Assembly (NCBI GenBank): GCA_031289875.1
Contig: JAITOO010000033.1
Location: 1 to 25,816, forward strand
Direction of reading: 5' to 3'
DNA length: 25,816 bases
From: Flavobacteriaceae bacterium
GTDB lineage: Bacteria; Bacteroidota; Bacteroidia; Flavobacteriales; Weeksellaceae
The notes under the pieces are model-generated. The model was not told where the DNA came from, did no database searches, and saw only the letters and a list, made by a program, of their open reading frames with translations. The stretch's first letter is position 1. Each line of letters starts with the position of its first letter. Positions 4,748-6,494 of this stretch are shown here, piece by piece. A program made the translations under genes and the position numbers.

Positions 4748-5185
4748 ATGAGAAATAACAAAATCTACGGCATTATCTTGTTAATTTTGGTTACTATTTT
4801 TCTGATATACAACTACAACATCTACACATCGAAGTCAAATTACGGAACTGTCCACCTCTCTCCGGAGGCGCTGAAAGGCGAGCGTTTATGGCTCAAAAAC
4901 AACTGCAACGCCTGTCATCAACTCTACGGGCTGGGCGGCTATCTCGGTCCTGACCTGACCAATATCTGTTCTACGCAGGGAAAACCTGACGAATATATCA
5001 AAGCAATGATGCTCAGTTCTTTAGACCCTATGCCTCAATTCAATTTCACCGAAGAAGAACAAAACGAACTTCTTCAATTCTTAAAAGCTGTTGATAAAAC
5101 AGGCTACTTCCCTAATAAACAAGCAAATATAGAACCCGACGGCTGGGTGAAACTCAAATACAAAGATTACCTTTATGAAAAATAA
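4748..5185 (+). CDS. NorC-like membrane-anchored cytochrome c
   Basis: Electron-donating small subunit for the haem-copper protein encoded next. The 145-aa product has one N-terminal membrane helix (about residues 6-24) and then a periplasmic monohaem domain. The haem c site is CNACH (Cys53, Cys56, His57), and Met95 in the segment DPMPQF is the likely sixth ligand. The order of helix, haem site and MPQF segment, and the length, match the NorC subunit of cytochrome-c nitric oxide reductase. The 3' end overlaps the next gene by 11 bp, so the two are surely co-translated, and the promoter at 4671-4700 drives both. Because the partner has altered active-site residues, I give no norC symbol. No NorQ, NorD or NO-responsive regulator is adjacent. 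Confidence 0.85.
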   Translation: MRNNKIYGIILLILVTIFLIYNYNIYTSKSNYGTVHLSPEALKGERLWLKNNCNACHQLYGLGGYLGPDLTNICSTQGKPDEYIKAMMLSSLDPMPQFNFTEEEQNELLQFLKAVDKTGYFPNKQANIEPDGWVKLKYKDYLYEK

Positions 5186-6494
5186 ATATCCGTTTTATTT
5201 TCTCGCAACGGCTCTAACGTGTTTATTGTTAAGCCTTTTGATTGGAATGCTTTCCAGCGTGCAGTACGCCGTTCCCTCTTTCATCAAAAACATAATTCCC
5301 TTTACCGTTTTCCGCCCATTGCACACGCTTTTTTCCGTGTCGTGGATTTTTATCGGCGCAATTGGAGGAATTTTTTATTACACGAGCAAAGAAGACGAAA
5401 ACGCCAAGTTCCGGAATGTCATGAAAGTACTGTTTTGGCTTTTCGCCCTGACGGGAATCGGAATTGCGGTTTCCTATCTGGCGAAAAACTTTGAAGGCAA
5501 AGAATATCTGGAATTTCCTCACTTTTTCTACTTCCCGATTCTCCTCGGCTGGATACTTTTCGGCGTATATTATTTCAAATTTCTGTTTTCTCGCAAAGGT
5601 CTGTTTCCCGCCTATTACTGGATGTGGGGAACAGGAATCGTTACCATGATTTTCCATTTCACTGAAGCGCATTTGTGGATTCTGCCGTATTTTCAGGGAG
5701 ATTACATGCAAAACCTCTCCATGCAATGGAAAGCCAACGGCTCGGCAGTCGGGGCGTGGAATATGCTCGTTTACGGAACTTCGATGTACGTAATGGCAAA
5801 AACCAGCGGAAGCGATGCTTATTCTCGTTCCAAAACCGCATTTTTCTTCTATTTCCTAAGTCTGGTAAATTTGATGTTCAACTGGGCGCACCACGTATAT
5901 CCAATCCCGATTGCGCCGTGGATTCGCATCGCCGCCTATGTTATCAGCATGACGGAATGGCTGATTCTTTTTTCCATGATTTATAATTGGAGCAAGAGCC
6001 TTTCCAAAGAAAAGAAAGCGGTTTACTCTCCGGCGCACAGATTTATGATTTTGAGCGATGTTTGGATTGTTCTGAACCTGCTTCTGGCGATTTCGATTTC
6101 CATTCCTGCGGTCAATTATTTCACTCACGGAACGCACTTTACGGTTGCCCACGCTATGGGAACAACCATCGGCATCAACACGTTGATTTTGCTCTCGTCC
6201 ATCAGTTATCTGCTTGAAAATCAGAATCCTTTTTCGGAACAGGATAAACGTTGGCTGAAAGTGGGGACGAATATTTTCAACATTTCTTTTGTCTGCTTTT
6301 GGATTGTGCTAATCGTGATGGGCGCAGAGCGAAGCGAATGGCGTTATTCGGAAAAAAATGTGCCGTTTGCCGTATTCAGAGAAGAGATGCACGGAATTTA
6401 CACAGCGTTTGCCGTGTCCGGCGCAGGTATTTTGATTGGGCTGTCCATCGTGCTGTTTTATCTGTTCAAAAGTTTGAAGAAAGCCGTTAAGTGA
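5175..6494 (+). CDS. NorB-like haem-copper oxidoreductase subunit with altered active-site ligands
   Basis: Multi-helix integral membrane protein (439 aa, about 12 helices) of the NOR branch of the haem-copper superfamily. Landmarks shared with cytochrome-c NorB are FRPLH (His50, haem b), GKEYLE (109-114), the pair His239/His240 (FeB), Glu261 (counterpart of Glu280) and THGT followed by His326 (haem b3). The spacings His240-Glu261 and Glu261-His326 fit NorB closely. Alignment without gaps back from the His pair puts Asn188 where the third FeB histidine belongs and Val192 where the FeB glutamate belongs. Met328 replaces the second histidine of the usual HGH motif. The fold and the cytochrome c partner are secure, but the reaction is not. 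It could be NO reduction by a divergent centre, another NO or O2 reaction, or a sensing or detoxifying role. Database labels such as cbb3-type subunit I would also fit loosely. Confidence 0.8.
   Translation: MKNKYPFYFLATALTCLLLSLLIGMLSSVQYAVPSFIKNIIPFTVFRPLHTLFSVSWIFIGAIGGIFYYTSKEDENAKFRNVMKVLFWLFALTGIGIAVSYLAKNFEGKEYLEFPHFFYFPILLGWILFGVYYFKFLFSRKGLFPAYYWMWGTGIVTMIFHFTEAHLWILPYFQGDYMQNLSMQWKANGSAVGAWNMLVYGTSMYVMAKTSGSDAYSRSKTAFFFYFLSLVNLMFNWAHHVYPIPIAPWIRIAAYVISMTEWLILFSMIYNWSKSLSKEKKAVYSPAHRFMILSDVWIVLNLLLAISISIPAVNYFTHGTHFTVAHAMGTTIGINTLILLSSISYLLENQNPFSEQDKRWLKVGTNIFNISFVCFWIVLIVMGAERSEWRYSEKNVPFAVFREEMHGIYTAFAVSGAGILIGLSIVLFYLFKSLKKAVK

What the first reader, a model, noticed from the sequence alone, without database searches (positions are those of the whole stretch)
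5736..5750. NorB-like subunit lacks one FeB histidine and the FeB glutamate
Gap-free alignment backwards from His239/His240 (via Lys209 and Trp195) puts QWKANGSAVGAW over the cNOR segment that reads WVVHLWVEGVW. The third FeB histidine becomes Asn188 and the FeB glutamate becomes Val192. FeB would keep only two histidines. From memory, a His-to-Asn change at this FeB ligand is also a feature of the putative NO dismutases (NOD), but those are long quinol-type proteins. This one is short and has a cytochrome c partner. The reaction is therefore open: slow NO reduction, NO disproportionation, another NO/O2 chemistry, or sensing.
Basis: partly seen in the sequence, partly recalled or inferred. Interest (0 to 1): 0.78.

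Follow-up and report, generated by a model that had tools for sequence, protein, structure and literature searches.

The report
NorB-like protein with rebuilt active site
This bacterium carries a gene pair that resembles a nitric oxide reductase, but the protein family it belongs to has lost two of the six metal-holding histidines typical of this enzyme class and a key glutamate, so gene counts may wrongly treat it as an ordinary nitric oxide reductase.

Summary
The loss is real and family-wide: of 328 distinct relatives examined, none has His, Asp or Glu on helix VI (residues 182-199), where cNOR carries a FeB histidine and glutamate. The dismutase parallel fails. A missed change: at the low-spin heme b ligand of helix X, Met328 replaces His (326 of 327). 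Four of six signature histidines remain; Glu164 and Lys186 are invariant. The family is a branch separate from cNOR+qNOR (99/99, long branches flagged), found across Bacteroidota, with NorC adjacent in 74 of 80 loci; 21 of 80 also hold a canonical norB. In 100 genomes of the window's taxonomic family, NosZ is in 14 of 15 carriers and 24 of 85 others. Best reading: a NorCB-like complex with an altered second-metal site and a probable His/Met heme, most likely a slow or specialised NO reductase in NosZ-bearing cells. Activity is unproven, and the one physiological hint (CB-01, membership unchecked) is of minor activity.

The parts
4748..5185 (+). NorC-like membrane-anchored cytochrome c, 145 aa
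   Evidence: ORF; Pfam Cytochrome_CBB3 and Cytochrom_C; a NorC homologue lies directly upstream of the variant norB in 74 of 80 related loci
4904..4918 (+). heme c motif CNACH of the NorC-like protein (residues 53-57); likely axial Met95 at 5030-5032
   Evidence: C53, C56 and Met95 in 75 of 75, His57 in 74 of 75 variant NorC proteins
5175..6494 (+). NorB-like heme-copper-oxidase-fold protein, 439 aa; start overlaps the end of norC by 11 bases
5322..5324 (+). His50, helix II, low-spin heme b ligand position
   Evidence: 328 of 328
5664..5666 (+). Glu164, near the end of helix V, invariant in this family; not found at this place in the cNOR, qNOR and cbb3 rows compared
   Evidence: 328 of 328; comparison rows
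5724..5762 (+). helix VI motif QWKxxGxxxGxWN (residues 184-196) that stands where cNOR has RWWVVHLWVEGVWE
   Evidence: this is also the stretch matched by the DNA pattern
5730..5732 (+). Lys186, invariant
   Evidence: 328 of 328
   Evidence: position 188 variable, 189 invariant Gly, 192 V/T/I
5739..5741 (+). Gly189, most likely equivalent of the lost helix-VI FeB histidine
   Evidence: Gly 328 of 328
5751..5753 (+). Gly193, equivalent of the FeB glutamate if helix VI is anchored gap-free on Trp185 (hhalign gives Val192 instead)
   Evidence: Gly 328 of 328; spacing Trp482/His486/Glu490 of a qNOR from PMC10256718
5889..5894 (+). His239-His240, helix VII, retained metal ligand positions
   Evidence: 328 of 328
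5955..5957 (+). Glu261, equivalent of cNOR Glu280
   Evidence: 328 of 328; aligned
6150..6152 (+). His326, proximal ligand position of high-spin heme b3
   Evidence: 327 of 327; gap-free
6156..6158 (+). Met328 where cNOR has His349, the low-spin heme b ligand
   Evidence: 326 of 327, one Thr; assignment of His347/His349 from PMC10256718 (passage)

Best explanation
The window encodes NorC plus NorB of a distinct, Bacteroidota-wide family of NorCB-like complexes. Shown by sequence: a heme c motif in NorC; His50 and Met328 at the two low-spin heme b positions; His326 at the heme b3 position; His239/His240 for the second metal; no helix-VI ligand; invariant Glu164 and Lys186. Inferred: electrons pass from a soluble donor to heme c, then to a higher-potential His/Met heme b, then to heme b3. 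Next to b3, a non-heme metal is held by two histidines and perhaps a carboxylate (Glu164 or Glu261), with Gly189 and Gly193 leaving a roomier distal pocket. Inferred function: consumption of NO at low turnover, most likely 2 NO to N2O, as a protective or scavenging NO reductase in cells that carry NosZ. The confidence given applies to this function; that the family exists and lacks these ligands I hold at about 0.95.
For: Conservation in 328 distinct sequences: both helix-VII histidines and the b3 histidine are kept wherever the sequence is present, which argues for a working heme/metal site rather than decay. NorC adjoins it in 74 of 80 loci. NO/N2O neighbourhood in those 80 loci: RIC 41, Rrf2 regulator 36, any nos gene 23, canonical norB 21, globin 21 (one member each of RIC, Rrf2 and globin confirmed by profile). 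In 100 genomes of the window's taxonomic family, clade II NosZ is in 14 of 15 carriers against 24 of 85 non-carriers (p 2e-6) and RIC in 14 of 15 against 43 of 85 (p 0.002); the canonical NOR motif shows no link with NosZ (8 of 21 against 30 of 79). The window's genome has NosZ and only one other COX1 protein, a cbb3 oxidase, so this is the only NOR-like heme-copper protein found in it. By a NirK proxy (partial hits, which coincide with NirK hits in the six genomes checked), four carriers have NirK and NosZ but no canonical NOR motif. In a bioreactor, Cloacibacterium 'cnorB' transcripts were suppressed at high oxygen (PMC11879220, passages); whether those genes belong to this family was not checked.
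Against: Loss of the FeB glutamate and of one FeB histidine would be expected to cripple a cNOR; the glutamate is called essential and fully conserved in NORs (PMC10256718, passages). [quoted passage not shown] one Cloacibacterium record (P0004) is in this family, but CB-01's own gene was not checked. In 21 of 80 loci a canonical norB is already present, so a plain duplicate activity is odd. I saw no norQ or norD among the window's ORFs (read by eye). RIC is not found in the window's genome. The variant fills few of the gaps: of genomes with NirK and NosZ but no canonical motif it is in 1 of 3 in the order sample and, by the NirK proxy, in 4 of 11 in the family sample. In the order sample the NosZ link is weaker (3 of 4 carriers, 29 of 192 others, p 0.014). 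Relatedness of the genomes was not corrected for. NosZ co-occurrence also fits roles other than NO reduction.
Confidence: 0.47

Rival explanations
1. It no longer reduces NO catalytically but binds NO (or O2) at heme b3 and passes on a signal or gates electron flow: a membrane-bound redox or NO sensor, or NO buffer, derived from a NorCB-like ancestor.
For: Loss of two ligands and of the FeB glutamate in the 328 relatives examined; a canonical norB in the same locus in 21 of 80; 'minor NO reductase activity' in CB-01 (PMC11168931, passage; family membership of that gene not checked).
Against: No extra output domain in a 439-aa protein; the heme c partner and both helix-VII histidines are kept; 11 of 15 carriers in the family sample have no canonical NOR motif, which fits an enzyme better than a sensor.
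Confidence: 0.22
2. It runs a different NO or N-oxide reaction: disproportionation as proposed for NOD, one-electron reduction to HNO, or NO oxidation.
For: A changed second-metal site and a probable higher-potential low-spin heme would change the chemistry; an invariant Lys186 lies close to the lost ligand in sequence.
Against: The NOD signature (consistent His to Asn, Glu to Gln, long qNOR-type protein; PMC3413370, passages) is not met. No search for oxygen-using hydrocarbon pathways was made, so this is not excluded by context.
Confidence: 0.14
3. It is an electron conduit, for instance between the respiratory chain and NosZ, in which the b3/metal site is vestigial.
For: Co-occurrence with NosZ (14 of 15 carriers); heme c and a possible His/Met heme b are suited to electron transfer.
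Against: 24 of 85 non-carriers have NosZ without it; one carrier (G057, 90% complete) and one in the order sample (G528) show no NosZ; a vestigial site should not keep His239, His240 and His326 invariant.
Confidence: 0.1
4. Artefact: misalignment, frameshift or a decaying gene.
For: The register of helix VI is uncertain by one residue.
Against: Either register lacks a ligand; the frame is open without stops; 328 distinct homologues share the pattern; the model has the whole fold.
Confidence: 0.02

Closest known systems
[quoted passage not shown]
   Different: No helix-VI His or Glu, Met instead of His at the low-spin heme b position, invariant Glu164 and Lys186, 23-25% identity to cNORs on proteobacterial plasmids in the 15 rows listed of 78, separate branch in the tree
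cbb3 oxygen reductase CcoN (a common database name for this family)
   Different: CcoN keeps the helix-VI His and the HxH pair; 52 bits against a cut-off of 583 for the ccoN model; the adjacent ORFs are a NorC-like cytochrome and a transporter, not CcoO or CcoP by profile
Putative NO dismutase (NOD)
   Same: Loss of one FeB histidine and of the FeB glutamate (PMC3413370, passages)
   Different: NOD is long and qNOR-type with consistent Asn and Gln and all but one histidine; here Gly or variable, four of six histidines, short, with NorC
qNOR (NorZ)
   Same: Helix VII and heme b3 ligand positions
   Different: The qNOR-type rows printed keep the helix-VI His and Glu and the HxH pair; the 10 in the tree form their own clade

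Membership tests
cNOR | histidine sextet (two for heme b, one for b3, three for FeB) | tested here: not met
   4 of 6 kept; helix VI Gly189 (or Asn188) and helix X Met328 replace the other two
cNOR | FeB glutamate on helix VI | tested here: not met
   Asp or Glu at 182-199 in 0 of 328, the window included
cNOR | NorC partner with heme c | tested here: met
   window 4748-5185; adjacent in 74 of 80 loci; CxxCH in 74 and Met95 in 75 of 75
cNOR | placement inside the cNOR clade | tested here: not met
   37 variant rows form one side of a branch (99/99), 17 cNOR rows another (98/95); long branches were flagged
cNOR | norQ/norD for FeB insertion | tested here: inconclusive
   none seen by eye among the window ORFs; NorQ-like genes in 24 of 80 loci, 20 of these with a canonical norB in view; not searched in the window's whole genome
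cNOR | 2 NO to N2O activity | not testable with these tools
   needs an assay
NOD | consistent Asn at the FeB His position and Gln at the Glu position | tested here: not met
   Asn in 4 of 328 at 188, never at 189; no Gln at 192 or 193
NOD | long qNOR-type single-chain protein | tested here: not met
   439 aa with separate NorC; 435-485 aa in the 240 listed relatives (the searches only took candidates of 0.55-1.75 times the query's length)
cbb3 CcoN | score above the curated ccoN cut-off | tested here: not met
   52.2 against 583.15 bits
heme-copper oxidase superfamily (fold) | COX1 domain and fold | tested here: met
B-family-related NORs (bNOR, eNOR, sNOR, gNOR, nNOR) | relation to B-family oxygen reductases (as told in PMC11388526, passage) | tested here: inconclusive
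   best sequence and fold matches are cNOR and cbb3, but no B-family reference was in the tree

The most novel reading that the evidence does not exclude
A new class of NorCB-type enzyme in which the binuclear site has been rebuilt: helix VI is stripped to two invariant glycines, the second metal is held by two histidines and a carboxylate from another helix (Glu164) or is tuned by Lys186, and electrons arrive through a His/Met low-spin heme b, which none of the passages I saw describes in this superfamily. It would be the NO reductase, or another NO-consuming enzyme, of a share of the NosZ-bearing Bacteroidota now scored either as having an ordinary cnorB or as having none.
Probability: 0.35. 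Interest if true: 0.86.

Novelty: new variant of a known kind. Interest (0 to 1): 0.68.

Why it matters
Clade II NosZ Bacteroidota are being promoted as N2O sinks, and their NO and N2O budget depends on whether their 'cnorB' works. Where sources name members of this family, they mostly call them cbb3 subunit I or nitric oxide reductase subunit B. Some surveys discard NorB-like sequences that lack ligand residues (PMC12569097; PMC9188126; passages), so the same gene may be counted by one pipeline and dropped by another. Two surveys report Bacteroidota with nir and nosZ but no nor (PMC12569097; PMC4250227, which names Flavobacteriales; passages). A test of one purified member would say whether these genomes can reduce NO. 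It would also probe how few ligands a heme-copper site needs, and what a methionine at the low-spin heme does.

Tried and rejected
Rejected: (1) His161 or His166 as the replacement ligand for the family: His in only 196 and 188 of 328. (2) Asn188 as a NOD-like signature: not conserved. (3) A local mutation or decay: excluded by family-wide conservation. (4) CcoN membership: score far under the cut-off. (5) Association of the variant with the canonical NOR motif by genome: none (4 of 15 carriers, 17 of 85 others, p 0.51). The canonical DNA pattern also catches qNOR.

The DNA patterns need exact codons and miss divergent members; 2 of 8 phylum hits (G268, G483) gave no homologue in the fetched loci, leaving 6 of 395, one of them a fragment; the two new hits of the order sample (G506, G528) were not fetched. 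The 80 loci are the best 80 of 188 found, so are biased to close relatives, and 57 of the 80 are at least 20 kb long. The tree used 23 of those 80 loci, 13 of 15 pattern loci (the window itself and one fragment dropped) and the window, with 17 cNOR, 10 qNOR-type and 4 cbb3 rows; the first 200 residues of eight qNOR rows and the end of one CcoN were cut off; the tool warned of long branches. No NOD or B-family sequence was in the tree. Of the neighbour labels, the NorD-like and nosY-like members tested had no NCBIfam match. The paper that defines the newer NOR families (PNAS 2024, e2316422121) is not held, so I cannot say whether it mentions this family. In the ten paper searches I saw titles and starts of abstracts of the papers listed, none of which describes it; of eleven held papers I saw passages, of none the whole text.

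Full report

Gap-free phmmer alignments to the two NorB structures reproduce it: Asn188 over the FeB His, Val192 over the FeB Glu. But profile comparisons with eight canonical cNORs and with four cbb3 CcoN, a 68-row MAFFT alignment and the phmmer alignment to cbb3 place the lost histidine on Gly189. A scan of registers finds 188 and 189 the only plausible ones. For cNOR, 188 scores better overall without a gap (11.3 against 2.8) and downstream, 189 better upstream; for cbb3, 189 is better (14.0 against -1.0). With 189, Trp185 falls on the tryptophan that lies four residues before the FeB histidine in qNOR (Trp482/His486/Glu490; PMC10256718, passages), and the glutamate position falls on Gly193 if no gap is opened; hhalign opens one and gives Val192. 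Whichever is right, there is no ligand: 0 of 328 distinct relatives have H, D or E at 182-199, and Gly189 and Gly193 are invariant, while position 188 is G150/Y150/T12/M8/N4/V2/S2. The 328 are the 80 loci, the 240 listed hits (the window among them) and 14 loci, less identical copies; one is a fragment.

cNOR His347 and His349 bind heme b3 and heme b (PMC10256718, passage). Here they read His326 and Met328, gap-free; Met328 is Met in 326 of 327. The six-histidine signature of the superfamily (PMC3413370, passage) is thus reduced to four: His50, His239, His240, His326, each invariant. Glu110, Glu164, Lys186 and Glu261 are invariant too. His161 and His166 are not (196 and 188 of 328), so they cannot be the family's replacement ligand. 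Glu164, Glu261 and Lys186 are candidates; no coordinates were available to test distances.

Family and tree. Two protein searches gave 1,864 and 2,314 hits at E 1e-3, 120 of each listed. Names given by sources include Flavobacterium, Chryseobacterium, Cloacibacterium, Chitinophagaceae, Saprospiraceae and Cytophagales, mostly called cbb3 subunit I or nitric oxide reductase subunit B; the listed proteins have 435-485 aa. In a maximum-likelihood tree of 68 rows the 37 variants form one group (99/99) and 17 cNORs another (98/95). Ten qNOR-type rows form a third group, and cNOR and qNOR join each other (100/99) before the variants. Long branches were flagged. A canonical cNOR from a Flavobacteriaceae locus is 42.6-51.4% identical to cNORs on proteobacterial plasmids in 22 of the 30 rows listed. 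The window protein is 23.4-24.5% identical over 69% of its length in the 15 rows listed. It is not a recent relic of cNOR.

Neighbourhood. Among 80 loci: adjacent NorC 74, NadA 50, NadB 49, RIC 41, Rrf2 36, NrdD 28, NorD 25, NorQ 24, NorE 24, Crp 23, any nos gene 23, canonical norB (HLWVEG) 21, globin 21. One member each of RIC, NorQ, Rrf2, globin and the COX3-type NorE was checked by profile. The NorD-like and nosY-like members tested had no NCBIfam match. The other labels rest on my reading of the sequences. In the window itself I saw no such neighbour (read by eye).

Genomes. In 100 genomes of the window's taxonomic family: variant 15, canonical NOR motif 21, NosZ above cut-off 38, RIC above cut-off 57. 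NosZ is in 14 of 15 carriers and 24 of 85 others (p 2e-6); RIC in 14 of 15 and 43 of 85 (p 0.002); the canonical motif in 4 of 15 and 17 of 85 (p 0.51). Relatedness was not corrected for, and five carriers of one genus are near-identical in this protein. Seven sampled congeners of the window's genome have neither the variant nor NosZ above cut-off. The window's genome has NosZ, no RIC, no NirK and no canonical NOR motif. By a NirK proxy, 15 of the 100 have NirK and NosZ; 11 of these lack the canonical motif, and the variant is in 4 of the 11. In 196 genomes of the order: variant 4, canonical 21, NosZ 32, NirK 20. Ten have NirK and NosZ; 3 of the 10 lack the canonical motif, and the variant is in 1 of those 3 (G024). 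So it does not explain most of the missing nor genes seen here. In 395 genomes of the phylum: 6 variant hits after dropping 2, 43 canonical.

Function. A cNOR made without norQDEF lacks FeB and is inactive or nearly so (PMC9976466, passages), and the glutamate is called essential (PMC10256718, passages). The only physiological hint is CB-01. It is said to have cNor but 'minor NO reductase activity' (PMC11168931, passage), and its genotype predicts NO to N2O to N2 (PMC9239227, passage). Its gene may be of this family, since one Cloacibacterium record is (P0004, 62% identity), but this was not checked. Against a dead site stands the complete conservation of both helix-VII histidines and the b3 histidine. 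I therefore favour a working NO-consuming complex with an altered second-metal site (0.47), ahead of an NO-binding sensor or buffer (0.22), other NO chemistry (0.14) and an electron conduit (0.10). The first figure was lowered by 0.01 when the proxy count of unfilled gaps (7 of 11) was added.

Against known kinds. It works like a NorCB in outline but fails three tests of cNOR membership (sextet, glutamate, tree), so I do not file it there. It does not match the NOD pattern. It is a new variant of the heme-copper superfamily, common, and not described in the titles, abstract starts and passages I saw; the 2024 PNAS survey could not be read.

Noticed in passing
L051 and 34 further loci within about 10 kb of the variant norB: A multi-helix membrane protein of about 410-425 aa with a HAHSHFAFSGW stretch (possible heme ligands), in 35 of 80 variant loci; the one member tested has no Pfam match.
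   Followed up: partly
L052 and 33 further loci near the variant norB: A protein of about 600 aa of unknown family in 34 of 80 loci; the one member tested has no Pfam match.
   Followed up: partly
loci: Genes that I read as nadA and nadB lie near variant norCB in 50 and 49 of 80 loci, perhaps because NadA's iron-sulfur cluster is NO-sensitive (recalled).
   Followed up: no
window 4913-4963, NorC-like protein residues 56-72: The variant NorC reads CHQLYGLGGYLGPDLTN where canonical NorC in the same loci has CHTxLGEGAYYAPELTK; the Lys is Asn in 75 of 75 and the first Glu is Leu in 74 and Ser in 1 of 75 variant NorCs, against 18 of 18 Lys and Glu in canonical ones.
   Followed up: partly
G000 against G016, G041, G058, G071, G081, G090, G097: The window's genome carries variant norCB and NosZ, while 7 of 7 sampled congeners lack the variant pattern and NosZ above cut-off, which suggests joint gain or loss.
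   Followed up: no
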